Source: Pseudoips prasinana (taxonomy: Eukaryota > Arthropoda > Insecta > Lepidoptera > Nolidae). From it: DNA of 64,000 nucleotides. A model generated the notes under the pieces. The model did no database searches and was not told the origin of the DNA. It saw nothing but the letters and a program-made list of their open reading frames with translations. The stretch covers positions 1,922,001-1,986,000 of the forward strand of contig OX621259.1 of assembly GCA_951640165.1 (NCBI GenBank), written 5' to 3'. A program made the translations under genes and the position numbers. Shown in pieces: positions 1,667 to 26,009 of the stretch (its first letter is position 1; the number at the start of each line of letters is the position of its first letter).

Positions 1667-1756
1667 TAAATAGACGACGTTATAATACCAAAAAACTATG
1701 ACCATGAACAAATTATTCTTAAAATTGACAATAAAGTAATCAGTAATCCTCTAGAA

Positions 1757-3400
1757 GTGGCTAACATTTTTTCTAAAACATTTGACAACAGTGTATGCCT
1801 GAGGGCGTGTGACCACAATCAGGCTATGACATTTTTGACTGAGAATATTAACAGAATAGAACAAAGCATGTATTTTGACTTAGTCACTCCTTTAGAAGTA
1901 CTAAATATAGTTAAGAAAATGGTAAATAAATCTACAGTTGGTCATGATGAAATTCCTCTTGCTATCATCAAAGATAATATTGACCTGTTTGCAACACCTT
2001 TAGCTTTGTTTTACAATGAGTGCATTGAGGTTGGCCTGTTTCCTGAACAATTTAAAATCGCCCGTGTTATCCCAATATTTAAAAAAGGGTCAAAAACAGA
2101 GGCCGGCAACTAAAGACCAATCTCCTTGCTACCCGTATTGTCCAAGATTTTTGAGAAAATAATGAAAGATAGGCATATTTTACACTGTCAGCAATTTGGA
2201 TACCAAAAAACTAAAGGCACCACTGATGCTATTGAAGCTTTAGTGGACGAGGTTGTCTGTAAATTAATTGACAGGCATAAAGTGGCAGGCATCTTTTTAG
2301 ATTTGAGTTCTGCATTCAATACCGTAGACCACAATATCCTGTTGTCAAAGTTAGAACACTATGGTATTCGAGAAAATGTACTAAAACTTTTCAGTTCATA
2401 TTTGCATAACAGAAGACAGTATATAGAAATCAAAACTGTAGTAGATGATGAAGAAAACGTTTACAAACTTAGTTACAGTTTTCCGTGGAGTACCTCAGGG
2501 CTCTATCCTGGGACCAATTTTCTTTATTTTATTCCTGAATGACCTGGCTGAAGACATAAAATCACAAATACCCGATATCAAACTTATTATATTTGCAGAT
2601 GATACAAATGCTATAATATCTGCATAAACAATAACTGATTTAGAATCTAAGGTAAACGCGGTCGTAAAAGCTTTTAAGAAATGGTTTGGCTCTAATAATC
2701 TGAAACTTAACGTAAATAAAACGAAATGTATGCTGTTCAAAACTACAATAAGAAATAAAAACAGTCTTCAAGTAGTGTCTTGTGGAGATAAAGTAGATGT
2801 AGTTGATAATGTTAAGTTCTTAGGAGTATATATTGACGCTTTGCTGAACTGGAAATTGGAAACATCATCCATAACGAAAGAAATTAGTTCTGCATGCTAT
2901 GCTATTCGTAAATTGAGAGACGAACTCAGCTTGGCTCAACTCAAGCTGGTTTATTTTGCTCTGGTTAAGTCAAAGCTCAGATACAGCATCAAATTCTGGG
3001 GCAATAGTTATAACTACAACATACAATCAGCGTTTGTTTTACAAAAAAGAGCGATAAGAACAATGCTTTGCTTGCAGCAAATGGATTCATGCAGAGACTA
3101 TTTTATTAAGCTAGAAATTTTGACTGCCCCGTGCTTATATGTATTAGTTTTATTAACAGGCTTTGTAAAAAATCTCCTCAAATTTGAAAATGTTGAGGAA
3201 AGACAGATTTGAGAGCAAACTCGTAAAAACCTTCATTGTTCCAAGCCAAACTTAATGTGGTTCAACACAGTTCCAGAGTACAATCGGTCTCATTATATCA
3301 TAAGTTGCCTTTAGAATTTAAAAGCATATATAGACCACATATATTCAGGGATAAATTAAAAAACTATTTATTGAAGAAAGGCTTTTATAGTGTAAGTGTA
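1757..3400 (+). pseudogene. LINE reverse transcriptase, frameshifted and interrupted
   Basis: Frame 2 carries the region before the RT fingers (1757-2113, ending KIARVIPIFKKGSK). After a TAA it continues with the RT fingers and palm (2126-2542), including GIFLDLSSAFNTVDH, which holds the first catalytic Asp. At about 2440-2500 the homology moves to frame 0 (2445-2627), with GVPQGSILGP and the FADDT box that holds the catalytic Asp pair. A TAA at 2625-2627 follows. Frame 0 resumes at 2730-3212 with FLGVYID and the tail blocks ACYAIRKL and LQKRAIRTM. Decayed tail sequence is still readable to about 3400. All catalytic motifs survive, but the chain cannot be made from one frame. Confidence 0.85.
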
Positions 3401-3616
3401 AGAATTTATACATGACAAATGACTTCCTAATTATATAATGAAATGGTATGACACATGAACATAATCATATAAAATTGATAATAATGTAAGTAATGGTTAA
3501 TAATAAGATAAAATTGATAATAATGTAATGTAATTAATTTTAATTTGTAAATTAAGCTTTCAAATTTTCAACACAAATGTATTTGTTATGAAAAATAAAT
3601 GACTTATGACTTCTGA

Positions 3617-4667
3617 CATCTCCTTCTGACGTGAAGGCCCTTATGCGAAAAGAAGCCGAGAAAATGGAAATTTTACCGCTCAGAAGTGTTACAACTGTGG
3701 GAGATTAGGACACAAATCTATGCACTGTAAAACCAATAGATATTTGAGGACTCTTGTATAAATTCTTTGCCCATAAAATTGACGGTATCTTCTTTAATCA
3801 TTCTCCAGGCAGCTCTACATGTATTCTTCGACCCTTGTATAAATTTAGTGTGATATATTATTTTGGGATTTATTTATGCGCGATATTTAACGTATATACT
3901 TTTCACATTAAATTTTAGTTTTAACAGCATTATTCGCAATGCAAAGCGTAAATCTAATCTCAACTATTAGGTCAGAATAAAACTGAGTGAACAGTAGAAA
4001 TATACAAAATGATTACAATTTGTATAATAATTTTAATTACGTTTTAATAAATATTTATGTGATTATGGGACCACCTACCGCACGCATTTTTTAAGAACTT
4101 TTGGGGAAATAAACCATTTTTCGCGGGACAGTTAAGAATCACTTATTTGACCTCTCATACGTATTGCTACCGTTAAGCACTACCGTGGTTTCAAACTTAA
4201 GTTTACTAAAAATCTTGGTCATGATTTAACGTATTTATTTTCCAAATTAAATTTTAGTTTTAATTGCATTATTTGCAATGCAAAGCGTAAATCTAAAGGC
4301 ATCGTTAATGATCGCATTAAGCGACGCACGTAAAGGTGAAGCTTCATCATGGCTGTCGTCAATATGTTACCACGGAATGTCATGGGGCGAATTCAAAGAG
4401 CTGTTTTAGCCAGGTACGACTGCCTTGATACCACTGCCTCATTTCTAATCAACTTGAATAACATGAAACCAAAATAAAACGAGTGCTCAGTTGCATATGC
4501 TGCTACCCTCATGACATCCTTATTGTCCAGATGGAATGGCCTTAGCTTCGAGCAGATTGCAATCGCCATGAACTTAGCTAATATTGCGCAGACTGATCCG
4601 CGTGTCCAGAGGTTGGCATTTACTAATGATATTAAAACACGTAATGAGTTGCAAAGCCAACTGAAGG
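3617..4667 (+). repeat. array unit 1, rearranged edge unit
   Basis: Only the first knuckle survives. At about 3750 the sequence jumps from the region just after it into the spacer, losing the second knuckle. An extra displaced copy of spacer and gag-start DNA sits at about 3875-3960. A one-base loss in the core (gagctgttttagcc near 4400) adds a frameshift. Edge units diverging from the interior fits weaker homogenisation at array ends. Confidence 0.85.
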
Positions 4668-5816
4668 CATCTCCTTCTGGAAACGTGAAGGCCCTCATGC
4701 AAAAATAAGCCGAGAAAATGGAAATTTTACCGCTCTTAAGTGTTACAACTGTGGGAGATTAGGACACAAATCTATGCACTGTCAAACCAATAGATATTTG
4801 AGGACCCGCGATGACCGATTCAGACCGATGTCGGCCAAAAGCAGCCACAGCACGAGCAAGCAGTCAGCTGGAAGATCTGATGGAATAAATTGCTTTCATT
4901 GTAGTGAACAAGGACACTACGCGTCAAGCTGCCCGCAGCGGACCAACAGGGAGTCGCGCAGTAGCGGGACATCCGGTCCAGTCATTGAGAATGGGTTGGA
5001 TGTATGCATCGTGAAAAGGTAATCTCTTGTATAAAGTCTTTGCCCATAAAATTGACGGTATCTTCTTTAATCATTCTCCAGGCAGCTCTACATTTATTCT
5101 TTAAGGTCTAACTATTAGGTCAGAATAAAACTGAGTGAACAGTAGAAATATACAAAATGATTACACTTTGTATAATAATTTTAATTACGTTTTAATAAAT
5201 ATTTATGTGATTATGGGACCACCTACCGCACGCATTTTTAAGAACTTTAGGGAAATAAATCCATTTTTGCGGGACAGTTAAGAATCACTTATTTGACCTC
5301 TCATACGTATTGATACCGTTTAGCACTACCGTGGTGTCAAACTTAAGTTTACTAAAAATTTTAGTCGCGATATTTAACGTATTTATTTTTCAAATCAAAT
5401 TTTAGTTTTGATTGCATTATTTGCAATGAAAAGCGTAAATCTAAAAGCATCGTTAATGATCGCATTAAGCCATGCACGTAAAGGTGAAGCGTCATCATGG
5501 CTGTCGTCAATATGTTACCACGGAATGTCATGGGGCGAATTCAAAGAGCGGCTCTTAGCCAGGTACGACTGCCTTGATACCACTGCCTCATGTCTAATCA
5601 ACTTGAATAACATGAAACCAAAATAAAACGAATGCTCAGTTGCATATGCTGCTACCCTCATGACATCCTTATTGTCCAGGTGGAATGGCTTTGGCTTCGA
5701 GTAGATTGCAATCGCCAGGAACTTAGCTAATATTGCGCAGACTGATCCGCGTGTCCAGAGGTTGGCATTTACTAATGATATTAAAACACGTAATGAGTTG
5801 CAAAGCCAACTGAAGG
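4668..5816 (+). repeat. array unit 2 (dimer type A)
   Basis: Carries the variant ending ALMQK-stop at 4706-4708 and an Arg-to-Ser change in the second knuckle (CFHCSEQGH). The following core has a TAG in place of Gln near 5699 and a lost ATG. Confidence 0.85.
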
Positions 5817-6967
5817 CATCTCCTTCTGGAAACGTGCAGGCCCTCATGCGAAAAGAAGCCGAGAAAATGGAAATTTTACCGCTCTTAAGTGTTACAACTG
5901 TGGGAGATTAGGACACAAATCTATGCACTGTCAAACCAATAGATATTTGAGGACCCGCGATGACCGATTCAGACCGATGTCGGCCAAAAGCAGCCACAGC
6001 ACGAGCGAGCAGTCGGCTGGAAGATCTGATGGAATAAATTGCTTTCATTGTCGTGAACAAGGACACTACGCGTCAAACTGCCCGCAGCGGACCAACAGGG
6101 AGTCGCGCAGTAGCGGGACATCCGGTCCAGTCATTGAGAATGGGTTGGATGTATGCATCGTGAAAAGGTAATCTCTTGTATAAAGTCTTTGCCCATAAAA
6201 TTGACGGTATCTTCTTTAATCATTCTCCAGGCAGCTCTACATTTATTCTTTAAGGTCTAACTATTAGGTCAGAATAAAACTGAGTGAACAGTAGAAATAT
6301 ACAAAATGATTACACTTTGTATAATAATTTTAATTACGTTTTAATAAATATTTATGTGATTATGGGACCACCTACCGCACGCATTTTTTTAGAACTTTAG
6401 GGAAACAAAACATTTTTTCGCGGGATAGTTAAGAATCACTTATTTGACCTCTTATACGTATTGCTACCGTTTAGCACTACCGTGGTGTCAAACTTAAGTT
6501 TACTAAAAATCTTGGTCGCGATATTTAACGTATTTATTTTTAAAATCAAATTTTAGTTTTGATTGCATTATTTGCAATACAAAGCGTGAATCTAAAAGCA
6601 TCGTTAATGATCGCATTAAGCCACGCACGTTAAGGTGAAGCGTCATCATGGCTGTCGTCAATATGTTACCACGGAATGTCATGGGGCGAATTCAAAGAGC
6701 TGTTCTTAGCCAGGTACGACTGCCTTGATACCACTGCCTCATTTCTAATCAACTTGAATAACATGAAACCAAAATAAAACGAGTGCTCAGTTGCATATGC
6801 TGCTACCCTCATGACATCCTTATTGTCCAGATGGAATGGCCTTAGCTTCGAGCAGATTGCAATCGCCATGAACTTAGCTAATATTGCGCAGACTGATCCG
6901 CGTGTCCAGAGGTTGGCATTTACTAATGATATTAAAACACGTAATGAGTTGCAAAGCCAACTGAAGG
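5817..6967 (+). repeat. array unit 3 (dimer type B)
   Basis: Reads through RKEAEK, has ASNC in the second knuckle, and has a TAA in the core at cgcacgt-taa-ggt near 6630. The spacer has the aaacaaaacattttttcgcg variant. Confidence 0.85.
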
Positions 6968-8116
6968 CATCTCCTTCTGGAAACGTGAAGGCCCTCATGC
7001 AAAAATAAGCCGAGAAAATGGAAATTTTACCGCTCTTAAGTGTTACAACTGTGGGAGATTAGGACACAAATCTATGCACTGTCAAACCAATAGATATTTG
7101 AGGACCCGCGATGACCGATTCAGACCGATGTCGGCCAAAAGCAGCCACAGCACGAGCAAGCAGTCAGCTGGAAGATCTGATGGAATAAATTGCTTTCATT
7201 GTCGTGAACAAGGACACTACGCGTCAAGCTGCCCGCAGCGGACCAACAGGGAGTCGCGCAGTAGCGGGACATCCGGTCCAGTCATTGAGAATGGGTTGGA
7301 TGTATGCATCGTGAAAAGGTAATCTCTTGTATAAAGTCTTTGCCCATAAAATTGACGGTATCTTCTTTAATCATTCTCCAGGCAGCTCTACATTTATTCT
7401 TTTAGGTCTAACTATTAGGTCAGAATTAAACTGAGTGAACAGTAGAAATATACAAAATGATTACACTTTGTATAATAATTTTAATTACGTTTTAATAAAT
7501 ATTTATGTGATTATGGGACCACCTACCGCACGCATTTTTAAGAACTTTAGGGAAATAAATCCATTTTTGCGGGACAGTTAAGAATCACTTATTTGACCTC
7601 TCATACGTATTGATACCGTTTAGCACTACCGTGGTGTCAAACTTAAGTTTACTAAAAATTTTAGTCGCGATATTTAACGTATTTATTTTTCAAATCAAAT
7701 TTTAGTTTTGATTGCATTATTTGCAATGAAAAGCGTAAATCTAAAAGCATCGTTAATGATCGCATTAAGCCATGCACGTAAAGGTGAAGCGTCATCATGG
7801 CTGTCGTCAATATGTTACCACGGAATGTCATGGGGCGAATTCAAAGAGCGGCTCTTAGCCAGGTACGACTGCCTTGATACCACTGCCTCATGTCTAATCA
7901 ACTTGAATAACATGAAACCAAAATAAAACGAATGCTCAGTTGCATATGCTGCTACCCTCATGACATCCTTATTGTCCAGGTGGAATGGCTTTGGCTTCGA
8001 GTAGATTGCAATCGCCAGGAACTTAGCTAATATTGCGCAGACTGATCCGCGTGTCCAGAGGTTGGCATTTACTAATGATATTAAAACACGTAATGAGTTG
8101 CAAAGCCAACTGAAGG
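6968..8116 (+). repeat. array unit 4 (dimer type A)
   Basis: Nearly a duplicate of unit 2: ALMQK-stop, and the core TAG near 7999. The second knuckle is the consensus form. Confidence 0.85.
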
Positions 8117-9267
8117 CATCTCCTTCTGGAAACGTGCAGGCCCTCATGCAAAAAGAAGCCGAGAAAATGGAAATTTTACCGCTCTTAAGTGTTACAACTG
8201 TGGGAGATTAGGACACAAATCTATGCACTGTCAAACCAATAGATATTTGAGGACCCGCGATGACCGATTCAGACCGATGTCGGCCAAAAGCAGCCACAGC
8301 ACGAGCAAGTAGTCGGCTGGAAGATCTGATGGAATAAATTGCTTTCATTGTCGTGAACAAGGACACTTCGCGTCAAACTGCCCGCAGCGGACCAACAGGG
8401 AGTCGCGCAGTAGCGGGACATCCGGTCCAGTCATTGAGAATGGGTTGGATGTATGCATCGTGAAAAGGTAATCTCTTGTATAAAGTCTTTGCCCATAAAA
8501 TTGACGGTATCTTCTTTAATCATTCTCCAGGCAGCTCTACATTTATTCTTTTAGGTCTAACTATTAGGTCAAAATAAAACTGAGTGAACAGTAGAAATAT
8601 ACAAAATGATTACACTTTGTATAATAATTTTAATTACGTTTTAATAAATATTTATGTGATTATGGGACCACCTACCGCACGCATTTTTTTAGAACTTTAG
8701 GGAAACAAAACATTTTTTCGCGGGATAGTTAAGAATCACTTATTTGACCTCTTATACGTATTGCTACCGTTTAGCACTACCGTGGTGTCAAACTTAACTT
8801 TACTAAAAATCTTGGTCGCGATATTTAACGTATTTATTTTTTAAATCAAATTTTAGTTTTGATTGCATTATTTGCAATACAAAGCGTGAATCTAAAAGCA
8901 TCGTTAATGATCGCATTAAGCCACGCACGTTAAGGTGAAGCGTCATCATGGCTGTCGTCAATATGTTACCACGGAATGTCATGGGGCGAATTCAAAGAGC
9001 TGTTCTTAGCCAGGTACGACTGCCTTGATACCACTGCCTCATTTCTAATCAACTTGAATAACATGAAACCAAAATAAAACGAGTGCTCAGTTGCATATGC
9101 TGCTACCCTCATGACATCCTTATTGTCCAGATGGAATGGCCTTAGCTTCGAGCAGATTGCAATCGCCATGAACTTAGCTAATATTGCGCAGACTGATCCG
9201 CGTGTCCAGAGGTTGGCATTTACTAATGATATTAAAACACGTAATGAGTTGCAAAGCCAACTGAAGG
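8117..9267 (+). repeat. array unit 5 (dimer type B)
   Basis: Resembles unit 3 in its spacer and core TAA. It has a private TAG at 8310-8312 between the knuckles and a Tyr-to-Phe change in knuckle two, so it lacks the long knuckle frame seen elsewhere. Confidence 0.85.
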
Positions 9268-10415
9268 CATCTCCTTCTGGAAACGTGAAGGCCCTCATGC
9301 AAAAATAAGCCGAGAAAATGGAAATTTTACCGCTCTTAAGTGTTACAACTGTGGGAGATTAGGACACAAATCTATGCACTGTCAAACCAATAGATATTTG
9401 AGGACCCGCGATGACCGATTCAGACCGATGTCGGCCAAAAGCAGCCACAGCACGAGCAAGCAGTCAGCTGGAAGATCTGATGGAATAAATTGCTTTCATT
9501 GTCGTGAACAAGGACACTACGCGTCAAGCTGCCCGCAGCGGACCAACAGGGAGTCGCGCAGTAGCGGGACATCCGGTCCAGTCATTGAGAATGGGTTGGA
9601 TGTATGCATCGTGAAAAGGTAATCTCTTGTATAAAGTCTTTGCCCATAAAATTGACGGTATCTTCTTTAATCATTCTCCAGGCAGCTCTACATTTATTCT
9701 CTAGGTCTAACTATTAGGTCAGAATAAAACTGAGTGAACAGTAGAAATATACAAAATGATTACACTTTGTATAATAATTTTAATTACGTTTTAATAAATA
9801 TTTATGTGATTATGGGACCACCTACCGCACGCATTTTTAAGAACTTTAGGGAAATAAATCCATTTTTGCGGGACAGTTAAGAATCACTTATTTGACCTCT
9901 CATACGTATTGATACCGTTTAGCACTACCGTGGTGTCAAACTTAAGTTTACTAAAAATTTTAGTCGCGATATTTAACGTATTTATTTTTCAAATCAAATT
10001 TTAGTTTTGATTGCATTATTTGCAATGAAAAGCGTAAATCTAAAAGCATCGTTAATGATCGCATTAAGCCATGCACGTAAAGGTGAAGCGTCATCATGGC
10101 TGTCGTCAATATGTTACCACGGAATGTCATGGGGCGAATTCAAAGAGCGGCTCTTAGCCAGGTACGACTGCCTTGATACCACTGCCTCATGTCTAATCAA
10201 CTTGAATAACATGAAACCAAAATAAAACGAATGCTCAGTTGCATATGCTGCTACCCTCATGACATCCTTATTGTCCAGATGCAATGGCCTTAGCTTCGAG
10301 CAGATTGCAATCGCCATGAACTTAGCCAATATTGCGCAGACTGATCCGCGTGTCCAGAGGTTGGCATTTACTAATGATATTAAAACACGTAATGAGTTGC
10401 AAAGCCAACTGAAGG
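9268..10415 (+). repeat. array unit 6 (dimer type A start)
   Basis: Begins as type A (ALMQK-stop). Its core switches to a form with the long second core frame (10259) and a private Trp-to-Cys change there. Confidence 0.85.
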
Positions 10416-10770
10416 CATCTCCTTCTGGAAACGTGCAGGCCCTCATGCGAAAAGAAGCCGAGAAAATGGAAATTTTACCGCTCTTAAGTGTTACAACTGT
10501 GGGAGATTAGGACACAAATCTATGCACTGTCAAACCAATAGATATTTGAGGACCCGCGATGACCGATTCAGACCGATGCCGGCCAAAAGCCGCCACAGCA
10601 CGAGCAAGCAGTTGGCTGGAAGATCTGATGGAATAAATTGCTTTCATTGTCGTGAACAAGGACACTACGCGTCAAGCTGCCCGCAGCGGACCAACAGGGA
10701 GTCGCGCAGTAGCGGGACATCCGGTCCAGTCATTGAGAATGGGTTGGATGTATGCATCGTGAAAAGGTAA
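10007..10770 (+). pseudogene. gag-like fragment, best-preserved example in the array
   Basis: Three pieces make up a degraded LTR-retrotransposon gag. 10007-10225 encodes a capsid-like core with the block GEASSWLSSICYHGMSWGEF. One TAA at 10223-10225 separates it from 10259-10510 in the same frame (FEQIAIAMNLANIAQTDPRV), which probably continued the core. The nucleocapsid part lies in the -1 frame. There, one CX2CX4HX4C knuckle (CYNCGRLGHKSMHC) begins just upstream of ATG 10522, and a second (CFHCREQGHYASSC) follows 40 residues later, ending at TAA 10768-10770. The TAA and the frame change occur at the same sites in every unit inspected, so the gene was dead before it was amplified. Protease and polymerase parts are absent. 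A Ty3/gypsy-like origin is my best guess. Confidence 0.7.
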
Positions 10771-11564
10771 TCTCTTGTATAAAGTCTTTGCCCATAAAAT
10801 TGACGGTATCTTCTTTAATCATTCTCCAGGCAGCTCTACATTTATTCTTTTAGGTCTAACTATTAGGTCAGAATAAAACTGAGTGAACAGTAGAAATATA
10901 CAAAATGATTACACTTTGTATAATAATTTTAATTACGTTTTAATAAATATTTATGTGATTATGGGACCACCTACCGCACGCATTTTTAAGAACTTTAGGG
11001 AAATAAATCCATTTTTGCGGGACAGTTAAGAATCACTTATTTGACCTCTCATACGTATTGATACCGTTTAGCACTACCGTGGTGTCAAACTTAAGTTTAC
11101 TAAAAATTTTAGTCGCGATATTTAACGTATTTATTTTTCAAATCAAATTTTAGTTTTGATTGCATTATTTGCAATGAAAAGCGTAAATCTAAAAGCATCG
11201 TTAATGATCGCATTAAGCCATGCACGTAAAGGTGAAGCGTCATCATGGCTGTCGTCAATATGTTACCACGGAATGTCATGGGGCGAATTCAAAGAGCGGC
11301 TCTTAGCCAGGTACGACTGCCTTGATACCACTGCCTCATGTCTAATCAACTTGAATAACATGAAACCAAAATAAAACGAATGCTCAGTTGCATATGCTGC
11401 TACCCTCATGACATCCTTATTGTCCAGGTGGAATGGCTTTGGCTTCGAGCAGATTGCAATCGCCATGAACTTAGCCAATATTGCGCAGACTGATCCGCGT
11501 GTCCAGAGGTTGGCATTTACTAATGATATTAAAACACGTAATGAGTTGCAAAGCCAACTGAAGG
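10416..11564 (+). repeat. array unit 7
   Basis: Marked by atgccggcc instead of atgtcggcc and by an agccgccac variant between the knuckles. Its core has the TGT (Cys) form of the TTT position and the Phe variant NGFGFEQ. Confidence 0.85.
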
Positions 11565-12714
11565 CATCTCCTTCTGGAAACGTGCAGGCCCTCATGCGAA
11601 AAGAAGCCGAGAAAATGGAAATTTTACCGCTCTTAAGTGTTACAACTGTGGGAGATTAGGACACAAATCTATGCACTGTCAAACCAATAGATATTTGAGG
11701 ACCCGCGATGACCGATTCAGACCGATGCCGGCCAAAAGCAGCCACAGCACGAGCAAGCAGTTGGCTGGAAGATCTGATGGAATAAATTGCTTTCATTGTC
11801 GTGAACAAGGACACTACGCGTCAAGCTGCCCGCAGCGGACCAACAGGGTGTCGCGCAGTAGCGTACATCCGGTCCAGTCATTGAGAATTGGTTGGATGTA
11901 TGCATCGTGAAAAGGTAATCTCTTGTATAAAGTCTTTGCCCATAAAATTGACGGTATCTTCTTTAATCATTCTCCAGGCAGCTCTACATTTATTCTTTTA
12001 GGTCTAACTATTAGGTCAGAATAAAATTGAGTGAACAGTAGAAATATACAAAATGATTACACTTTGTATAATAATTTTAATTACGTTTTAATAAATATTT
12101 ATGTGATTATGGGACCACCTACCGCACGCATTTCTTAAGAACTTTAGGGAAATAAATCCATTTTTCGCGGGACGGTTAGGAATCACTTATTTGACCTCTC
12201 ATACGTATTGCTACCGTTTAGCACTACCGTGGTGTCAAACTTAAGTTTACTAAAAATCTTGGTCGCGATATTTAACGTATTTATTTTTCAAATCAAATTT
12301 TAGTTTTGATTGCATTATTTGCAATGCAAAGCGTAAATCTAAAAGCATCGTTAATGATCGCATTAAGCCACGCACGTAAAGGTGAAGCGTCATCATGGCT
12401 GTCGTCAATATGTTACCACGGAATGTCATGGGGCGAATTCAAAGAGCGGCTCTTAGCCAGGTACGACTGCCTTGATACCACTGCCTCATTTCTAATCAAC
12501 TTGCATAACATGAAACCAAAATAAAACGAGTGCTCAGTTGCATATGCTGCTACCCTCATGACATCCTTCTTGTCCAGATGGAATGGCCTTAGCTTCGAGC
12601 AGATTGCAATCGCCATGAACTTAGCTAATATTGCGCAGACTGATCCGCGTGTCCAGAGGTTGGCATTTACTAATGATATTAAAACACGTAATGAGTTGCA
12701 AAGCCAACTGAAGG
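11565..12714 (+). repeat. array unit 8, knuckle tail frameshifted
   Basis: Has agggtgtcgcg and a one-base deletion (agcgtacatcc), so the frame after knuckle two changes. The core carries LHNMK and SFLSRW variants. The tail variant recurs in unit 12, LHNMK in units 12 and 13, and SFLSRW in unit 13. Confidence 0.85.
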
Positions 12715-13865
12715 CATCTCCTTCTGGAAACGTGCAGGCCCTCATGCGAAAAGAAGCCGAGAAAATGGAAATTTTACCGCTCTTAAGTGTTACAACTGTG
12801 GGAGATTAGGACACAAATCTATGCACTGTCAAACCAATAGATATTTGAGGACCCGCGATGACCGATTCAGACCGATGTCGGCCAAAAGCAGCCACAGCAC
12901 GAGCAAGCAGTCAGCTGGAAGATCTGATGGAATAAATTGCTTTCATTGTCGTGAACAAGGACACTACGCGTCAAGCTGCCCGCAGCGGACCAACAGGGAG
13001 TCGCGCAGTAGCGGGACATCCGGTCCAGTCATTGAGAATGGGTTGGATGTATGCATCGTGAAAAGGTAATCTCTTGTATAAAGTCTTTGCCCATAAAATT
13101 GACGGTATCTTCTTTAATCATTCTCCAGGCAGCTCTACATTTATTCTTTTAGGTCTAACTATTAGGTCAGAATTAAACTGAGTGAACAGTAGAAATATAC
13201 AAAATGATTACACTTTGTATAATAATTTTAATTACGTTTTAATAAATATTCATGTGATTATGGGACCACCTACCGCACGCATTTTTTAAGAACTTTAGGG
13301 AAATAAATCCATTTTTCGGGGGACAGTTAAGAATCACTTATTTGACCTCTCATACGTATTGCTACCGTTTAGCACTACCGTGGTGTCAAACTTAAGTTTA
13401 CTAAAAATCTTGGTCGCGATATTTAACGTATTTATTTTTCAAATCAAATTTTAGTTTTGATTGCATTATTTGCAATGCAAAGCGTAAATCTAAAAGCATC
13501 GTTAATGATCGCATTAAGCCACGCACGTAAAGGTGAAGCGTCATCATGGCTGTCGTCAATATGTTACCACGGAATGTCATGGGGCGAATTCAAAGAGCTG
13601 TTCTTAGCCAGGTACGACTGCCTTGATACCACTGCCTCATTTCTAATCAACTTGAATAACATGAAACCAAAATAAAACGAGTGCTCAGTTGCATATGCTG
13701 CTACCCTCATGACATCCTTATTGTCCAGATGGAATGGCCTTAGCTTCGAGCAGATTGCAATCGCCATGAAGTTAGCTAATATTGCGCAGACTGATCCGCG
13801 TGTCCAGAGGTTGGCATTTACTAATGATATTAAAACACGTAATGAGTTGCAAAGCCAACTGAAGG
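12715..13865 (+). repeat. array unit 9
   Basis: Marked by KLANIAQ in the core, KELFLARY, and spacer variants gaattaaactg and attcatgtg. The attcatgtg and KLANIAQ markers recur in unit 14. Confidence 0.85.
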
Positions 13866-15016
13866 CATCTCCTTCTGGAAACGTGCAGGCCCTCATGCGA
13901 AAAGAAGCCGAGAAAATGGAAATTTTACCGCTCTTAAGTGTTACAACTGTGGGAGATTAGGACACAAATCTATGCACTGTCAAACCAATAGATATTTGAG
14001 GACCCGCGATGACCGATTCAGACCGATGTCGGCCAAAAGCAGCCACAGCACGAGCAAGCAGTCGGCTGGAAGTACTGATGGAATAAATTGCTTTCATTGT
14101 CGTGAACAAGGACACTACGCGTCAAACTGCCCGCAGCGGACCAACAGGGAGTCGCGCAGTAGCGGGACATCCGGTCCAGTCATTGAGAATGGGTTGGATG
14201 TATGCATCGTGAAAAGGTAATCTCTTGTATAAAGTCTTTGCCCATAAAATTGACGGTATCTTCTTTAATCATTCTCCAGGCAGCTCTACATTTATTCTTT
14301 AAGGTCTAACTATTAGGTCAGAATAAAACTGAGTGAACAGTAGAAATATACAAAATGATTACACTTTGTATAATAATTTTAATTACGTTTTAATAAATAT
14401 TTATGTGATTATGGGACCACCTACCGCACGCATTTTTTTAGAACTTTAGGGAAACAAAACATTTTTTCGCGGGATAGTTAAGAATTACTTATTTGACCTC
14501 TTATACGTATTGCTACCGTTTAGCACTACCGTGGTGTCAAACTTAAGTTTACTAAAAATCTTGGTCGCGATATTTAACGTATTTATTTTTTAAATCAAAT
14601 TTTAGTTTTGATTGCATTATTTGCAATACAAAGCGTGAATCTAAAAGCATCGTTAATGATCGCATTAAGCCACGCACGTTAAGGTGAAGCGTCATCATGG
14701 CTGTCGTCAATATGTTACCACGGAATGTCATGGGGCGAATTCAAAGAGCTGTTCTTAGCCAGGTACGACTGCCTTGATACCACTGCCTCATTTCTAATCA
14801 ACTTGAATAACATGAAACCAAAATAAAACGAGTGCTCAGTTGCATATGCTGCTACCCTCATGACATCCTTATTGTCCAGATGGAATGGCCTTAGCTTCGA
14901 GCAGATTGCAATCGCCATGAACTTAGCTAATATTGCGCAGACTGATCCGCGTGTCCAGAGGTTGGCATTTACTAATGATATTAAAACACGTAATGAGTTG
15001 CAAAGCCAACTGAAGG
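13866..15016 (+). repeat. array unit 10
   Basis: Has a private agtact change replacing agatct between the knuckles, then the type-B spacer (aaacaaaacatttttt) and core TAA near 14681, like units 3 and 5. Confidence 0.85.
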
Positions 15017-16165
15017 CATCTCCTTCTGGAAACGTGAAGGCCCTCATGCAAAAATAAGCCGAGAAAATGGAAATTTTACCGCTCTTAAGTGTTACAACTG
15101 TGGGAGATTAGGACACAAATCTATGCACTGTCAAACCAATAGATATTTGAGGACCCGCGATGACCGATTCAGACCGATGTCGGCCAAAAGCAGCCACAGC
15201 ACGAGCAAGCAGTCGGCTGGAAGATCTGATGGAATAAATTGCTTTCATTGTCGTGAACAAGGACACTACGCGTCAAGCTGCCCGCAGCGGACCAACAGGG
15301 AGTCGCGCAGTAGCGGGACATCCGGTCCAGTCATTGAGAATGGGTTGGATGTATGCATCGTGAAAAGGTAATCTCTTGTATAAAGTCTTTGCCCATAAAA
15401 TTGACGGTATCTTCTTTAATCATTCTCCAGGCAGCTCTACATTTATTCTTTTAGGTCTAACTATTAGGTCAGAATAAAACTGAGTGAACAGTAGAAATAT
15501 ACAAAATGATTACACTTTGTATAATAATTTTAATTACGTTTTAATAAATATTTATGTGATTATGGGACCACCTACCGCACGCATTTTTAAGAACTTTAGG
15601 GAAATAAATCCATTTTTGCGGGACAGTTAAGAATCACTTATTTGACCTCTCATACGTATTGATACCGTTTAGCACTACCGTGGTGTCAAACTTAAGTTTA
15701 CTAAAAATCTTGGTCGCGATATTTAACGTATTTATTTTTCAAATCAAATTTTAGTTTTGATTGCATTATTTGCAATGCAAAGCGTAAATCTAAAAGCATC
15801 GTTACTGATCGCATTAAGCCACGCAAGTAATGGTGAAGCGTCATCATGGCTGTCGTCAATATGTTACCACGGAATGTCATGGGGCGAATTCAAAGAGCTG
15901 TTCTTAGCCAGGTACGACTGCCTTGATACCACTGCCTCATTTCTAATCAACTTGAATAACATGAAACCAAAATAAAACAAGTGCTCAGTTGCATATGCTG
16001 CTACCCTCATGACATCCTTATTGTCCAGATGGAATGGCCTTAGCTTCGAGCAGATTGCAATCGCCATGAACTTAGCCAATATTGCGCAGACTGATCCGCG
16101 TGTCCAGAGGTTGGCATTTACTAATGATATTAAAATACGTAATGAGTTGCAAAGCCAACTGAAGG
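15017..16165 (+). repeat. array unit 11
   Basis: Starts as type A (ALMQK-stop). Its core has private changes cgcaagtaatgg and an ACA-to-ATA codon (Thr to Ile). Confidence 0.85.
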
Positions 16166-17315
16166 CATCTCCTTCTGGAAACGTGCAGGCCCTCATGCGA
16201 AAAGAAGCCGAGAAAATGGAAATTTTACCGCTCTTAAGTGTTACAACTGTGGGAGATTAGGACACAAATCTATGCACTGTCAAACCAATAGATATTTGAG
16301 GACCCGCGATGACCGATTCAGACCAATGCCGGCCAAAAGCAGCCACAGCACGAGCAAGCAGTTGGCTGGAAGATCTGATGGAATAAATTGCTTTCATTGT
16401 CGTGAACAAGGTCACTACGCGTCAAGCTGCCCGCAGCGGACCAACAGGGTGTCGCGCAGTAGCGTACATCCGGTCCAGTCATTGAGAATGGGTTGGATGT
16501 ATGCATCGTGAAAAGGTAATCTCTTGTATAAAGTCTTTGCCCATAAAATTGACGGTATCTTCTTTAATCATTCTCCAGGCAGCTCTACATTTATTCTTTT
16601 AGGTCTAACTATTAGGTCAGAATAAAATTGAGTGAACAGTAGAAATATACAAAATGATTACACTTTGTATAATAATTTTAATTACGTTTTAATAAATATT
16701 TATGTGATTATGGGACCACCTACCGCACGCATTTCTTAAGAACTTTAGGGAAATAAATCCATTTTTCGCGGGACGGTTAAGAATCACTTATTTGACCTCT
16801 CATACGTATTGCTACCGTTTAGCACTACCGTGGTGTCAAACTTAAGTTTACTAAAAATCTTGGTCGCGATATTTAACGTATTTATTTTTCAAATCAAATT
16901 TTAGTTTTGATTGCATTATTTGCAATGCAAAGCGTAAATCTAAAAGCATCGTTAATGATCGCATTAAGCCACGCACGTAAAGGTGAAGCGTCATCATGGC
17001 TGTCGTCAATATGTTACCACGGAATGTCATGGGGCGAATTCAAAGAGCGGCTCTTAGCCAGGTACGACTGCCTTGATACCACTGCCTCATTTCTAATCAA
17101 CTTGCATAACATGAAACCAAAATAAAACGAGTGCTCAGTTGCATATGCTGCTACCCTCATGACATCCTTATTGTCCAGATGGAATGGCCTTAGCTTCGAG
17201 CAGATTGCAATCGCCATGAACTTAGCTAATATTGCGCAGACTGATCCGCGTGTCCAGAGGTTGGCATTTACTAATGATATTAAAACACGTAATGAGTTGC
17301 AAAGCCAACTAAAGG
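16166..17315 (+). repeat. array unit 12, frameshifted tail like unit 8
   Basis: Shares the one-base deletion, agggtgtcgcg, the aattgagtg spacer change and LHNMK with unit 8, which lies 4,601 bp upstream. This marks a duplicated block. Confidence 0.85.
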
Positions 17316-18466
17316 CATCTCCTTCTGGAAACGTGCAGGCCCTCATGCGAAAAGAAGCCGAGAAAATGGAAATTTTACCGCTCTTAAGAGTTACAACTGT
17401 GGGAGATTAGGACACAAATCTATGCACTGTCAAACCAATAGATATTTGAGGACCCGCGATGACCGATTCAGACCGATGTCGGCCAAAAGCAGCCACAGCA
17501 CGAGCAAGCAGTCGGCTGGAAGATCTGATGGAATAAATTGCTTTCATTGTCGTGAACAAGGACACTACGCGTCAAGCTGCCCGCAGCGGACCAACAGGGA
17601 GTCGCGCAGTAGCGGGACATCCGGTCCAGTCATTGAGAATGGGTTGGATGTATGCATCGTGAAAAGGTAATCTCTTGTATAAAGTCTTTGCCCATAAAAT
17701 TGACGGTATCTTCTTTAATCATTCTCCAGGCAGCTCTACATTTATTCTTTTAGGTCTAACTATTAGGTCAGAATAAAATTGAGTGAACAGTAGAAATATA
17801 CAAAATGATTACACTTTGTATAATAATTTTAATTACGTTTTAATAAATATTTATGTGATTATGGGACCACCTACCGCACGCATTTTTTAAGAACTTTAGG
17901 GAAATAAATCCATTTTTCGCGGGACAGTTAAGAATCACTTATTTGACCTCTCATACGTATTGCTACCGTTTAGCACTACCGTGGTGTCAAACTTAAGTTT
18001 ACTAAAAATCTTGGTCGCGATATTTAACGTATTTATTTTTCAAATCAAATTTTAGTTTTGATTGCATTATTTGCAATGCAAAGCGTAAATCTAAAAGCAT
18101 CGTTAATGATCGCATTAAGCCACGCACGTAAAGGTGAAGCGTCATCATGGCTGTCGTCAATATGTTACCACGGAATGTCATGGGGCGAATTCAAAGAGCG
18201 GCTTTTAGCCAGGTACGACTGCCTTGATACCACTGCCTCATTTCTAATCAACTTGCATAACATGAAACCAAAATAAAACGAGTGCTCAGTTGCATATGCT
18301 GCTACCCTCATGACATCCTTCTTGTCCAGATGGAATGGCCTTAGCTTCGAGCAGATTGCAATCGCCATGAACTTAGCTAATATTGCGCAGACTGATCCGC
18401 GTGTCCAGAGGTTGGCATTTACTAATGATATTAAAACACGTAATGAGTTGCAAAGCCAACTGAAGG
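17316..18466 (+). repeat. array unit 13
   Basis: Has a private ttaagagttac change in knuckle one, and LHNMK plus SFLSRW in the core. It looks like an extra copy inserted into the duplicated block, because spacing of matched variants grows from four units to five here. Confidence 0.8.
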
Positions 18467-19617
18467 CATCTCCTTCTGGAAACGTGCAGGCCCTCATGCG
18501 AAAAGAAGCCGAGAAAATGGAAATTTTACCGCTCTTAAGTGTTACAACTGTGGGAGATTAGGACACAAATCTATGCACTGTCAAACCAATAGATATTTGA
18601 GGACCCGCGATGACCGATTCAGACCGATGTCGGCCAAAAGCAGCCACAGCACGAGCAAGCAGTCAGCTGGAAGATCTGATGGAATAAATTGCTTTCATTG
18701 TCGTGAACAAGGACACTACGCGTCAAGCTGCCCGCAGCGGACCAACAGGGAGTCGCGCAGTAGCGGGACATCCGGTCCAGTCATTGAGAATGGGTTGGAT
18801 GTATGCATCGTGAAAAGGTAATCTCTTGTATAAAGTCTTTGCCCATAAAATTGACGGTATCTTCTTTAATCATTCTCCAGGCAGCTCTACATTTATTCTT
18901 TTAGGTCTAACTATTAGGTCAGAATAAAATTGAGTGAACAGTAGAAATATACAAAATGATTACACTTTGTATAATAATTTTAATTACGTTTTAATAAATA
19001 TTCATGTGATTATGGGACCACCTACCGCACGCATTTTTTAAGAACTTTAGGGAAATAAATCCATTTTTCGCGGGACAGTTAAGAATCACTTATTTGACCT
19101 CTCATACGTATTGCTACCGTTTAGCACTACCGTGGTGTCAAACTTAAGTTTACTAAAAATCTTGGTCGCGATATTTAACGTATTTATTTTTCAAATCAAA
19201 TTTTAGTTTTGATTGCATTATTTGCAATGCAAAGCGTAAATCTAAAAGCATCGTTAATGATCGCATTAAGCCATGCACGTAAAGGTGAAGCGTCATCATG
19301 GCTGTCGTCAATATGTTACCACGGAATGTCATGGGGCGAATTCAAAGAGCTGTTCTTAGCCAGGTACGACTGCCTTGATACCACTGCCTCATTTCTAATC
19401 AACTTGAATAACATGAAACCAAAATAAAACGAGTGCTCAGTTGCATATGCTGCTACCCTCATGACATCCTTATTGTCCAGATGGAATGGCCTTAGCTTCG
19501 AGCAGATTGCAATCGCCATGAAGTTAGCTAATATTGCGCAGACTGATCCGCGTGTCCAGAGGTTGGCATTTACTAATGATATTAAAACACGTAATGAGTT
19601 GCAAAGCCAACTGAAGG
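18467..19617 (+). repeat. array unit 14
   Basis: Matches unit 9 in the attcatgtg and KLANIAQ markers, 5,752 bp upstream. Confidence 0.85.
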
Positions 19618-20768
19618 CATCTCCTTCTGGAAACGTGCAGGCCCTCATGCGAAAAGAAGCCGAGAAAATGGAAATTTTACCGCTCTTAAGTGTTACAACT
19701 GTGGGAGATTAGGACACAAATCTATGCACTGTCAAACCAATAGATATTTGAGGACCCGCGATGACCGATTCAGACCGATGTCGGCCAAAAGCAGCCACAG
19801 CACGAGCAAGCAGTCGGCTGGAAGATCTGATGGAATAAATTGCTTTCATTGTCGTGAACAAGGACACTACGCGTCAAACTGCCCGCAGCGGACCAACAGG
19901 GAGTCGCGCAGTAGCGGGACATCCGGTCCAGTCATTGAGAATGGGTTGGATGTATGCATCGTGAAAAGGTAATCTCTTGTATAAAGTCTTTGCCCATAAA
20001 ATTGACGGTATCTTCTTTAATCATTCTCCAGGCAGCTCTACATTTATTCTTTTAGGTTTAACTATTAGGTCAGAATAAAATTGAGTGAACAGTAGAAATA
20101 TACGAAATGATTACACTTTGTATAATAATTTTAATTACGTTTTAATAAATATTTATGTGATTATGGGACCACCTACCGCACGCATTTTTTTAGAACTTTA
20201 GGGAAACAAAACATTTTTTCGCGGGACAGTTAAGAATCACTTATTTGACCTCTCATACGTATTGCTACCGTTTAGCACTACCGTGGTGTCAAACTTAAGT
20301 TTACTAAAAATCTTGGTCGCGATATTTAACGTATTTATTTTTCAAATCAAATTTTAGTTTTGATTGCATTATTTGCAATGCAAAGCGTAAATCTAAAAGC
20401 ATCGTTAATGATCGCATTAAGCCACGCACGTAAAGGTGAAGCGTCATCATGGTTGTCGTCAATATGTTACCACGGAATGTCATGGGGCGAATTCAAAGAG
20501 CTGTTCTTAGCCAGGTACGACTGCCTTGATACCACTGCCTCATTTCTAATCAACTTGAATAACATGAAACCAAAATAAAACGAGTGCTCAGTTGCATATG
20601 CTGCTACCCTCATGACATCCTTATTGTCCAGATGGAATGGCCTTAGCTTCGAGCAGATTGCAATCGCCATGAAGTTAGCTAATATTGCGCAGACTGATCC
20701 GCGTGTCCAGAGGTTGGCATTTACTAATGATATTAAAACACGTAATGAGTTGCAAAGCCAACTGAAGG
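19618..20768 (+). repeat. array unit 15
   Basis: Has ASNC in knuckle two, a private tacgaaatg, and a type-B spacer joined to a core without the type-B TAA. It is a mosaic. Confidence 0.85.
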
Positions 20769-21912
20769 CATCTCCTTCTGGAAACGTGAAGGCCATAATG
20801 CGAAAATAAGCCGAGAAAATGGAAATTTTACCGCTCTTAAAACTGTGGGAGATTAGGACACAAATCTATGCACTGTCAAACCAATAGATATTTGAGGACC
20901 CGCGATGACCGATTCAGACCGATGTCGGCCAAAAGCAGCCACAGCACGAGCAAGCAGTCAGCTGGAAGATCTGATGGAATAAATTGCTTTCATTGTCGTG
21001 AACAAGGACAATACGCGTCAAGCTGCCCGCAGCGGACCAACAGGGAGTCGCGCAGTAGCGGGACATCCGGTCCAGTCATTGAGAATGGGTTGGATGTATG
21101 CATCGTGAAAAGGTAATCTCTTGTATAAAGTCTTTGCCCATAAAATTGACGGTATCTTCTTTAATCATTCTCCAGGCAGCTCTACATTTATTCTTTTAGG
21201 TCTAACTATTAGGTCAGAATAAAACTGAGTGAACAGTAGAAATATACAAAATGATTACACTTTGTATAATAATTTTAATTACGTTTTAATAAATATTTAT
21301 GTGATTATGGGACCACCTACCGCACGCATTTTTTAAGAACTTTAGGGAAATAAATCCATTTTTCGCGGGACAGTTAAGAATCACTTATTTGACCTCTCAT
21401 ACGTATTGCTACCGTTTAGCACTACCGTGGTGTCAAACTTAAGTTTACTAAAAATCTTGGTCGCGATATTTAACGTATTTATTTTTCAAATCAAATTTTA
21501 GTTTTGATTGCATTATTTGCAATGCAAAGCGTAAATCTAAAAGCATCGTTAATGATCGCATTAAGCCACGCACGTAAAGGTGAAGCGTCATCATGGCTGT
21601 CGTCAATATGTTACCACGGAATGTCATGGGGCGAATTCAAAGAGCTGTTCTTAGCCAGGTACGACTGCCTTGATACCACTGCCTCATTTCTAATCAACTT
21701 GAATAACATGAAACCAAAATAAAACGAGTGCTTAGGTGCATATGCTGCTACCCTCATGACATCCTTATTGTCCAGATGGAATGGCCTTAGCTTCGAGCAG
21801 ATTGCAATCGCCATGAAGTTAGCTAATATTGCGCAGACTGATCCGCGTGTCCAGAGGTTGGCATTTACTAATGATATTAAAACACGTAACGAGTTGCAAA
21901 GCCAACTGAAGG
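20769..21912 (+). repeat. array unit 16
   Basis: Lost seven bases (gtgttac) in knuckle one, which removes its first Cys. Knuckle two has EQGQY, so its zinc-binding His is replaced. The preceding frame ends KAIMRK-stop. Confidence 0.85.
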
Positions 21913-23062
21913 CATCTCCTTCTGGAAACGTGCAGGCCCTCATGCGAAAAGAAGCCGAGAAAATGGAAATTTTACCGCTCTTAAGTGTTACAACTGTGGG
22001 AGATTAGGACACAAATCTATGCACTGTCAAACCAATAGATATTTGAGGACCCGCGATGACCGATTCAGACCGATGTCGGCCAAAAGCAGCCACAGCACGA
22101 GCAAGCAGTCGGCTGGAAGATCTGATGGAATAAATTGCTTTCATTGTCGTGAACAAGGACACTACGCGTCAAGCTGCCCGCAGCGGACCAACAGGGAGTC
22201 GCGCAGTAGCGGGACATCCGGTCCAGTCATTGAGAATGGGTTGGATGTATGCATCGTGAAAAGGTAATCTCTTGTATAAAGTCTTTGCCCATAAAATTGA
22301 CGGTATCTTCTTTAATCATTCTCCAGGCAGCTCTACATTTATTCTTTTAGGTCTAACTATTAGGTCAGAATAAAACTGAGTGAACAGTAGAAATATACAA
22401 AATGATTACACTTGTATAATAATTTTAATTACGTTTTAATAAATATTTATGTGATTATGGGACCACCTACCGCACGCATTTTTCAAGAACTTTAGGGAAA
22501 TAAATCCATTTTTCGCGGGACAGTTAAGAATCACTTATTTGACCTCTCACACGTATTGCTACCGTTTAGCACTACCGTGGTGTCAAACTTAAGTTTACTA
22601 AAAATCTTGGTCGCGATATTTAACGTATTTATTTTTCAAATCAAATTTTAGTTTTGATTGCATTATTTGCAATGCAAAGCGTAAATCTAAAAGCATCGTT
22701 AATGATCGCATTAAGCCACGCACGTAAAGGTGAAGCGTCATCATGGCTGTCGTCAATATGTTACCACGGAATGTCATGGGGCGAATTCAAAGAGCTGTTC
22801 TTAGCCAGGTACGACTGCCTTGATACCACTGCCTCATTTCTAATCAACTTGAATAACATGAAACCAAAATAAAACGAGTGCTCAGTTGCATATGCTGCTA
22901 CCCTCATGACATCCTTATTGTCCAGATGGAATGGCCTTAGCTTCGAGCAGATTGCAATCGCCATGAACTTAGCTAATATTGCGCAGACTGATCCGCGTGT
23001 CCAGAGGTTGGCATTTACTAATGATATTAAAACACGTAATGAGTTGCAAAGCCAACTAAAGG
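21913..23062 (+). repeat. array unit 17
   Basis: The last complete unit. A one-base spacer loss (ttacacttgtat) and ctcacacgtatt are private. Confidence 0.85.
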
Positions 23063-23405
23063 CATCTCCTTCTGGAAATGTGCAGGCCCTCATGCGAAAA
23101 GAAGCCGAGAAAATGGAAATTTTACCGCTCTTAAGTGTTACAACTGTGGGAGATTAGGACACAAATCTATGCAATGTCAAACCAATAGATATTTGAGGAC
23201 CCGCGTTGACCGATTCAGACCGATGTCGGCCAAAAGCAGCCACAGCACGAGCAAGCAGTCGGCTGGAAGATCTGATGGAATAAATTGCTTTCATTGTCTT
23301 GGACAAGGACACTACGCGTATATTGCGCAGACTGATCCGCGTGTCCAGAGGTTGGCATTTACTAATGATATTAAAACACGTAATGAGTTGCAAAGCCAAC
23401 TGAAG
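23063..23405 (+). repeat. array unit 18, truncated and rearranged end unit
   Basis: Normal to about 23317, in the middle of knuckle two. It then jumps back to the gag-core segment beginning tattgcgcagactg (also at about 22977) and stops about 88 bp later. The knuckle is destroyed by the junction. Confidence 0.85.
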
Positions 23406-23514
23406 CAATTTACATAACTCTGCTCATAGATTGAATAAATCCATGGATTTTTTAGTGATTGGCTGATAATTTATAGACCCATTAATTGACTCAACTTTTA
23501 TTTTTTATTTATTT

Positions 23515-24740
23515 TTTTTTATTTATCACTTTATGCACAAAAAAAATGTACAAAGGCGGACTTAATGCCCTAGGCATTTTCTGCCAGTCAACCTTAGGGT
23601 GGTGCAGAGAGAGCATGGTAGGTGCACAGATCATAAGGTAAACATTAATAGTAGAAAAAACAGGAATATACAATACTATAAAATACTATACAATGCAATA
23701 CATACGATACTATAATATATAACACTATATAATAATATAATACTATACTACTATACAACTATTTAATCCGATCATGTAATCATATATATATATATCATCG
23801 AGGGGTTTCTGCTAATAATTTCCGAAAGATATGCTCTCGAACTTTTCTTTTAAATGAGAAGCGACTCTTGGCTTTTATCTTTTTACATCCGGGCCCAATA
23901 TTGTATTAAAACGTATCCGTCTCCATTGCGTCATTGCAACATTGCGTCTATACTCTAGAGTCCAAAAATGGTACCGTTTACACCGATTTATTTAATCAGC
24001 TGTGCAATAGTGTGCTTTGAAGTCTAAACATCTCAATAATTTCTGTTGGATGCATTCTATTCGAGATATATAGATTTGGCTCCGCGAATTTTCGGGCGCA
24101 TACGAACAGTACAGTATTTTATTGGTTTTGAATGATCGGAAACAGGCTGATGTTCTCATAACCAAACTAAAAGCTTTTTTGATGATATAATCTCTATGCT
24201 TGTCGTTAAGGAGTTTTCTATTGTATCTCAATTTTCATTTTATATACAATTTTGATGAGTTGGCTGTTTAGCTTGGTCCGATGCCAATATTTTTTTTAAT
24301 TTTGTGATTGAAACATTTGTAGGTTTGACTGGAGTTTATAACGCAAGTAAGATGACTTAGACAGGTTTGAGGACTACCAAGCTGGTCTAAGTTATTAGGG
24401 AGGATTTATTGAATTGGTGATCGAGGTTTTCAAATCATAGTTATACCGTCTATGCCTTTGATTTGAAAATCCTCGATATTCTCGATACATACGAATTTTT
24501 ATAACAGTATTCGATATTGGTTATAAATATAACGGATAAAAGTGGTTCCAAGAGTGACCCTTGAAGCACCCCAGATGGAACCGTAGTCCAACCTGATGTG
24601 AAACCCTGGAGAACAACAGCCTGCAACCGCTTATCTATGTCTGAGAAAAATCTACGGTATGGTGCTCCTTTTATAACAGTAGCTTGCAGCACTCTAAGTA
24701 GCATTCTGTGATCAATACAGTCAAAACATCTGCTAATGAT
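23515..24740 (-). pseudogene. decayed LINE, RT and 3' end, minus strand
   Basis: On the minus strand, 24704-24450 shows a weathered RT motif (GVLQGSLLEPLL, normally GVPQGSxLGPLL) after a segment around ADIDKR/VVLQGFTSGW. 24231-23992 shows a tail like the C-terminal LINE block (RIECIQQKLLRCLDFK). The right-to-left order matches one element whose 3' UTR runs to about 23515. The stretch 23530-23600 (aaggcggacttaatgcc, tctgccagtcaacc) is one I recognise from 3' ends of lepidopteran LINEs. Multiple stops and shifts mean it is dead. An AT-rich low-complexity tract at 23660-23790 lies in the 3' region. Confidence 0.7.
24420..24477. repeat. imperfect inverted repeat
   Basis: Arms 24420-24437 and 24459-24477 are complementary except for one extra base. 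It lies inside the decayed LINE. Confidence 0.7.
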
Positions 24741-25340: not shown

Positions 25341-25425
25341 CACTTTTTGTTGGGCTGGCTTTGAATTTGAACAAAGGACCTCTTTATCTGCGGTTTGACA
25401 CGCTACCGCTAGAATTTATTGCTAT
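25340..25425 (-). mobile_element. SINE fragment, tRNA-like part
   Basis: Matches the tRNA-like end of the element at 62046-62390 (ggacctc-ttatctgcggt, ctaccgctaga), in the same orientation, with several changes. Confidence 0.5.
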
Positions 25426-25429
25426 TGAA

Positions 25430-26005: not shown

Positions 26006-26009
26006 TACT

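What the first reader, a model, noticed from the sequence alone, without database searches (positions are those of the whole stretch)
3617..23405. A retrotransposon gag fragment amplified into an 18-unit macrosatellite
About 20 kb consists of head-to-tail copies of one 1,150-bp unit containing a capsid-like core and two CCHC knuckles, with no protease or RT. Tandem satellites built from an LTR-element gag piece, rather than from whole elements or LTRs, are unusual. Uniform orientation and near-constant spacing exclude independent insertions.
Basis: partly seen in the sequence, partly recalled or inferred. Interest (0 to 1): 0.8.

Follow-up and report, generated by a model that had tools for sequence, protein, structure and literature searches.

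The report
Satellite built around captured gag piece
In what looks like a moth or butterfly chromosome, a broken piece of an old retrotransposon gene sits inside another tandem repeat, and the combined block has been copied head to tail into fast-changing arrays, a new example of a known way that repeats arise.

Summary
The array is real: 16 complete units (1,144-1,151 bp) and one partial, head to tail at 4301-23319, with scrambled edges at 3617-4300 and 23320-23405. The unit is a chimera: about 715 bp of a Ty3/gypsy-type gag, a ~90-bp junction block, and a ~340-bp monomer that forms its own gag-free tandem array elsewhere on the same contig. Other arrays have a 1,275-bp unit; the window's lacks ~125 bp of it. 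The unit reads as neutral: broken frames, no codon-position bias. In searches that scored only part of their candidates, DNA relatives lie on one 28-Mb contig (C25), except one gag copy on C33 and one weak match on C23. A twin array 600 kb away shares both flanks at about 99.5%, yet units 1-16 have no twin partner above 99.22%, and each array shows its own block duplications. This is a good record of satellite turnover, probably by unequal exchange, but a new member of a known kind.

The parts
3617..4300 (+). Left edge: scrambled remnant of the 1,275-bp type unit (unit 368-505, 724-801, then the ~125-bp block missing from the 1,150 type, then monomer 807-1150)
   Evidence: (junction block matched at C25:1925751-1925880 = window 3751-3880)
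4301..22694 (+). 16 complete head-to-tail units of 1,144-1,151 bp
22695..23319 (+). 17th unit, partial (625 bp)
   Evidence: with the 86-bp end piece 99.7% identical to the twin array over 711 bp
23320..23405 (+). 86-bp end piece (unit 281-366), shared with the twin array
4301..5015 (+). Within unit 1: gag-derived part, capsid-like region plus nucleocapsid, broken by stops and a frameshift
   Evidence: (unit 3)
4741..4782 (+). Unit 1: first CCHC knuckle
   Evidence: sequence; PF00098 on the corresponding piece of unit 3
4891..4932 (+). Unit 1: second CCHC knuckle
   Evidence: sequence; PF00098 on the corresponding piece of unit 3
5016..5106 (+). Unit 1: junction block of unknown origin; the 141-bp form of the 1,275 type was matched only in C25 arrays
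5107..5448 (+). Unit 1: ~340-bp satellite monomer, present elsewhere on C25 as a gag-free tandem array
872..3616 (+). Left flank: degenerate non-LTR retrotransposon (endonuclease 872-1666 and RT 2126-2542 frames); compared with the twin from 1220 on, 99.5% identical
23406..26379 (.). Right flank shared with the twin array (99.4% over 2,508 bp) except 23508-23871, absent from the twin

Best explanation
A chimeric, non-coding higher-order satellite. Step 1 (inferred from junctions): a truncated gag piece of a Ty3/gypsy-type element was joined by illegitimate recombination into a ~340-bp satellite. Step 2 (structure shown, mechanism inferred): gag plus flanking monomer sequence was amplified as a 1,275-bp unit and spread over about 3.2 Mb of one contig in direct and inverted order. 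Step 3 (difference shown, direction inferred): loss of ~125 bp gave the 1,150-bp unit, which expanded beside a leftover 1,275-type remnant. Step 4 (shown in the assembly): the array and its flanks occur twice on the contig. Step 5 (pattern shown, mechanism inferred): both copies then turned over by unequal exchange or gene conversion, with a 2-unit block duplication in one and a 4-unit one in the other. No coding function is needed.
For: Unit structure and gag-free monomer array (21 pairs of 7 monomers 84.3-95.1%). 71 of 71 monomer matches on C25 (39 of 401 candidates scored). 40 of 40 junction-block matches on C25 (40 of 73 candidates scored). 1,275-type remnant at the left edge. Window units form one clade, 17 of 17 (support 0.786), against arrays A, B, C in a tree of 45 gag pieces that did not yet hold the twin. 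Twin with flanks 99.5% and 99.44% and right edge 99.72%, but no window unit 1-16 has a twin partner above 99.22%. Twin P2=P6 and P4=P8 100%, P3/P7 99.9%, P1/P5 99.2%, offset-4 p=0.0006; window offset 5 p=0.006, offset 2 p=0.04. Variable sites by codon position 21/16/20 in the window, 47/37/48 in arrays B and C. Array ends and breaks fall at different unit positions.
Against: Monomer-first order is inferred: gag-free monomers could derive from the composite. Offset p values are uncorrected for the 10 and 8 offsets tried. Clade support is moderate, recombination violates a tree model, and once the twin is added its units interleave with the window's. Mean identity between the twins (98.17) is almost that within them (98.22, 98.46). 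The left scrambled edge is 97.7% between twins, below the flanks. Flanks may have been homogenised by conversion, which would exaggerate the contrast. The junction block has no identified source. No reads were seen, so the assembly is trusted.
Confidence: 0.82

Rival explanations
1. A gag fragment alone was amplified into a satellite, and the non-gag part is just the fragment's own flank.
For: About 62% of the unit is gag-like.
Against: The rest forms a tandem array without gag, at 337-344 bp spacing, and the 1,275 unit holds a monomer tail joined to a monomer in the same way.
Confidence: 0.07
2. The array is a source of antisense or small RNAs (a piRNA-type locus) that restrains the gag family, and is kept for that.
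For: Gag-rich tandem and inverted clusters on one contig; dispersed, more distant gag copies exist on other contigs.
Against: No expression data could be seen; no sign of coding constraint, which does not speak against an RNA role. The only close gag relative outside C25 among the scored matches is one copy on C33, 84-87% identical.
Confidence: 0.06
3. A tandemly repeated domesticated gag gene that still makes protein.
For: In the 1,275-type array C, 3 of 6 units have a + strand frame of 142-153 aa as their longest; 3 of 15 twin capsid matches hold no stop.
Against: In the window the longest frame is antisense in 15 of 16 units; each of the 16 window capsid matches listed holds 1 or 2 stops; a frameshift parts capsid and nucleocapsid (one unit); no codon-position bias.
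Confidence: 0.02
4. A Helitron or other mobile element with fixed ends carries the gag piece and concatenates by rolling-circle replication.
For: Such arrays are described in a review (PMC12628747, passages).
Against: Array ends or breaks fall at different unit positions: about 1121, 1065 and 997 in the 1,275 frame, 368 in the window's unit; one dispersal carried its flanks. Helitron end motifs were not searched.
Confidence: 0.03
5. Assembly artefact (false duplication, or an array mis-sized in assembly).
For: Exact 4-unit duplication in the twin; twin on the same contig with flank divergence of 0.3-0.6%, a size that alleles could also show; on the left a third sampled stretch stays in order at 91-98%.
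Against: Unit-specific variants throughout; right of the twin the two sampled stretches match only in pieces, mostly 82-93%, at shifted positions; the window has no N.
Confidence: 0.07

Closest known systems
Rye E3900 satellite (Secale cereale; listed in the review PMC9659126, passages seen)
   Same: Tandem repeat that contains a partial gag reading frame of an LTR retrotransposon.
   Different: Plant; here an insect, and gag is nested in a separate ~340-bp satellite with intermediate forms still present. The original rye paper was not seen.
CRM1TR and CRM4TR of maize (PMC3648361, passages seen)
   Same: Ty3/gypsy-derived tandem arrays with locus variants; illegitimate recombination and gene conversion proposed.
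   Different: Built from LTR and UTR, not gag; pericentromeric.
Heterologous higher-order repeats (term seen in a reference title and a search listing; definition recalled)
   Same: A larger unit made of unrelated sequences and repeated as a block.
   Different: Here one component is a retrotransposon coding fragment.
Long-monomer satellites of crambid moths, such as Cper-Sat01 2,244 bp (PMC8042265, passages seen)
   Same: AT-rich, kilobase-sized tandem units in Lepidoptera, low genomic abundance.
   Different: The passage seen (cut at its start) seems to report no relevant similarity to described sequences; no gag origin is stated in what I saw.

Membership tests
Satellite DNA | Head-to-tail tandem arrangement of near-identical units | tested here: met
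   16 complete units, mean 98.2%
Satellite DNA | Concerted evolution: units more alike within than between arrays | tested here: met
   W-W 98.4%, W-B 95.1%, W-C 95.2%. Not so for the recent twin: WW 98.22, PP 98.46, WP 98.17
Satellite DNA | High genomic abundance | tested here: inconclusive
   At least about 65 units on C25, counted; the searches give lower bounds
Higher-order repeat satellite | Larger block repeated as a whole on a simpler monomer background | tested here: met
   The 1,275-bp unit holds a monomer and a monomer tail; gag-free monomers at 337-344 bp spacing
Ty3/gypsy-derived satellite | Homology of the unit to an LTR-retrotransposon part | tested here: met
   4 gag-like proteins 57-67% identical; some relatives carry RVT_1 and one PF17919. 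The Ty3/gypsy name is inferred from these
LTR retrotransposon copy | Protease and RT in the unit | tested here: not met
   No match in five translated pieces of one unit
LTR retrotransposon copy | LTRs and target-site duplication | not tested
   No search for LTRs or TSDs was run
Domesticated gag gene | Open frame and purifying selection | tested here: not met
Helitron-type array | Fixed termini shared by copies | tested here: not met
   Array ends and breaks at different unit positions; terminal motifs were not searched
W-chromosome repeat | Lies on a gene-poor, repeat-rich W | tested here: inconclusive
   C25: 1 of 96 homeodomain and 2 of 131 RRM matches, all beyond 15 Mb, against 2.4 and 3.3 expected by length; repeat cross-match 0.30 versus 0.25 in ten 3-kb stretches each

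The most novel reading that the evidence does not exclude
The gag-bearing satellite is a maintained regulatory array: amplified gag pieces in tandem and inverted order supply small RNAs against a retrotransposon family, and its rapid turnover keeps the supply large while its sequence drifts.
Probability: 0.06. Interest if true: 0.65.

Novelty: new member of a known kind. Interest (0 to 1): 0.38.

Why it matters
Intermediates of satellite birth are usually lost. Here a simple monomer array, the gag-bearing 1,275-bp composite, the 1,150-bp derivative and a duplicated twin lie on one contig, so the order of events can be read from one assembly. Twin arrays with about 99.5% identical flanks but reshuffled interiors would allow the rate of unequal exchange in a holocentric insect (holocentricity recalled, not tested) to be estimated.

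Tried and rejected
Viral contigs: no relative of the nucleocapsid piece (3 stretches matched a pattern, none confirmed). Rfam on the window, L013 and L018: 0 matches at gathering scores. tRNAs in the window: 0. W-chromosome idea: tested weakly, no support. Coding constraint within arrays: not found. A protein-kinase search did not complete, so the gene-density test rests on two families. Source of the 141-bp junction block: matched only in the arrays themselves. Literature: the listings (searches returned no paper) and passages of six papers showed no insect satellite made of gag inside another satellite. I did not read whole papers, and the library lacks most subscription papers, so this is weak.

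The one search point weakens the case against a false duplication, so that rival went from 0.05 to 0.07 and the best explanation from 0.84 to 0.82.

Full report
What is there. One unit (4301-5450) matched against the window gives 16 complete copies and one partial, all on the + strand, from 4301 to 23319, with edge pieces at 3617-4300 and 23320-23405. The 16 complete units are 96.4-99.8% identical, mean 98.2%. The finding's coordinates, period and orientation hold.

What the unit is made of. Translation of one unit shows a capsid-side frame and, in another frame, a nucleocapsid piece with two CCHC knuckles. The capsid piece matches gag-like proteins at 57-67% identity: 4 hits among 36 candidates, two of them from named moths (Mythimna loreyi, Leguminivora glycinivorella). 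A search with one of the four, P0002, gave 42 proteins including itself among 2,280 candidates, from moths, butterflies, flies, bees and a sawfly where named. Some carry reverse transcriptase (PF00078) and one also PF17919, hence the Ty3/gypsy name, which is an inference. Against P0002 (406 aa) the unit begins near residue 113 and ends near 357.

The rest of the unit is a different repeat. The window lies at C25:1922001-1986000 of a 1.126-Gb genome in 56 contigs. On C25 near 0.552-0.554 Mb the unit's last ~340 bp occurs head to tail without gag at 337-344 bp spacing, with pairwise identity 84.3-95.1% (21 pairs of 7 monomers). All 71 monomer matches lie on C25, with 39 of 401 candidates scored. 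The unit search (174 matches, not all listed; 36 of 184 candidates scored) lists C25 apart from one match on C33 (84%, unit 1-715) and one on C23 (80%, monomer part). Its list does not show the twin array described below, so it is far from complete. Other arrays on C25 have a 1,275-bp unit, in which the gag part is followed by a junction block, a monomer tail and a whole monomer. The window's 1,150-bp unit lacks one ~125-bp block of this. The left edge of the window array still has the longer type.

Neighbours. Arrays or pieces lie at 0.53-0.56, 1.326-1.344, 1.926-1.945, 2.87-2.91, 3.04-3.07, 3.69-3.70 and 3.72-3.73 Mb of C25. Counting 3+17+6+17 units (whose other two of 45 pieces are a gag-only copy and C33), 15 in the twin and 3+4 capsid hits (102 of 1,159 candidates scored) gives at least about 65, partial ones included. 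The segments at 0.532 and 2.868 Mb share 5.9 kb at 97.8%; the latter holds an inverted gag cluster, 97.0% over 2.7 kb. More distant gag copies, 41-49% identical to P0002, lie on many other contigs. In the tree of 45 pieces the 17 window units form one clade, support 0.786; the twin was fetched later, and its units interleave with the window's.

The twin. C25:1324001-1346500 aligns to the window on both sides of the array: left flank 99.5% (7 mismatches in 2,402 columns), right flank 99.44% (14 in 2,508), right-edge piece 99.72% (2 in 711); the left scrambled edge is 97.7%. The twin has 14 complete units and one partial, against 16 and one. If units had stayed in place, each window unit should have a partner near 99.5%; the best partners of units 1-16 are 97.8-99.2%. 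The twin holds a 4-unit block duplication (two pairs 100%, one 99.9%, one 99.2%; offset-4 p=0.0006). The window holds a 2-unit one (units 1, 3, 5 at 99.5-99.8%; units 2 and 4 at 99.3%; offset 2 p=0.04) and an excess at offset 5 (p=0.006). These are permutation values from 5,000 shuffles, uncorrected for 8 and 10 offsets. Against a clean reading: mean identity between the arrays (98.17) is almost that within them (98.22, 98.46), no column was near-fixed for different bases by the criterion used, and flanks may have been homogenised by conversion. Of three further stretches sampled around the twin, the left one keeps order (pieces of 91.3, 91.2 and 98.4%), while the two on the right match only in pieces, mostly 82-93%, at shifted positions. 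So a false duplication by the assembly is less likely but not excluded.

Function. In the window the longest frame is antisense in 15 of 16 units, and each of the 16 window capsid matches listed holds 1 or 2 stops (3 of 15 in the twin hold none). Variable sites show no codon-position bias within arrays (21/16/20 and 47/37/48); differences to the C33 copy lean to third positions (24.8/29.4/39.4 on average for the window), as expected from a coding past. No Rfam family or tRNA was found. I therefore favour a neutral satellite shaped by illegitimate recombination, segmental duplication and unequal exchange or conversion. These mechanisms are inferred from structure.

Sex chromosome. The idea that C25 is a W was tested only weakly. 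C25 is 2.5% of the genome (28.0 of 1,125.7 Mb). It has 1 of 96 homeodomain matches (weak, with a stop in its frame) and 2 of 131 RRM matches (no stops), all beyond 15 Mb, against 2.4 and 3.3 expected by length. Ten 3-kb stretches of distal C25 are hardly richer in shared repeats (0.30) than ten from other contigs (0.25), and 17 pieces around the window are at 0.19. So C25 gives no sign of being a W; this is not settled.

Novelty. A review lists gag-containing plant repeats, among them rye E3900 (PMC9659126, passages), and another names gag or pol domains as satellite sources (PMC12628747, passages). The listings (43 and 83 were empty) showed no insect case of gag nested in another satellite, in a library that lacks most subscription papers. 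The case is a new member of a known kind, with unusually complete intermediates.

Noticed in passing
L011 (C25:532000-541900) and L020 (C25:2868500-2878400): Duplicated segments with rearranged gag pieces in inverted order, interrupted by another reading frame that looks non-LTR-like (recalled, not searched).
   Followed up: partly
L009 4501-5787 (C33:41.826 Mb, - strand): A gag copy with an open 428-aa frame, the only close relative of the array gag outside C25 among the scored matches; a reverse-transcriptase frame (RVT_1) lies nearby.
   Followed up: partly
window 58118-58641: A separate ~135-bp tandem repeat, about 3.9 copies.
   Followed up: no
window 41074-42462: Open 462-aa frame with FLYWCH and MULE transposase domains.
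   Followed up: no
window 36177-37136 (-) and 55873-56424 (+): Frames with DDE_Tnp_4 and ISXO2-like (IS1595) transposase domains.
   Followed up: no
window 23508-23871: 364 bp present beside the window array and absent from the twin; contains AT-rich short tandem repeats.
   Followed up: no
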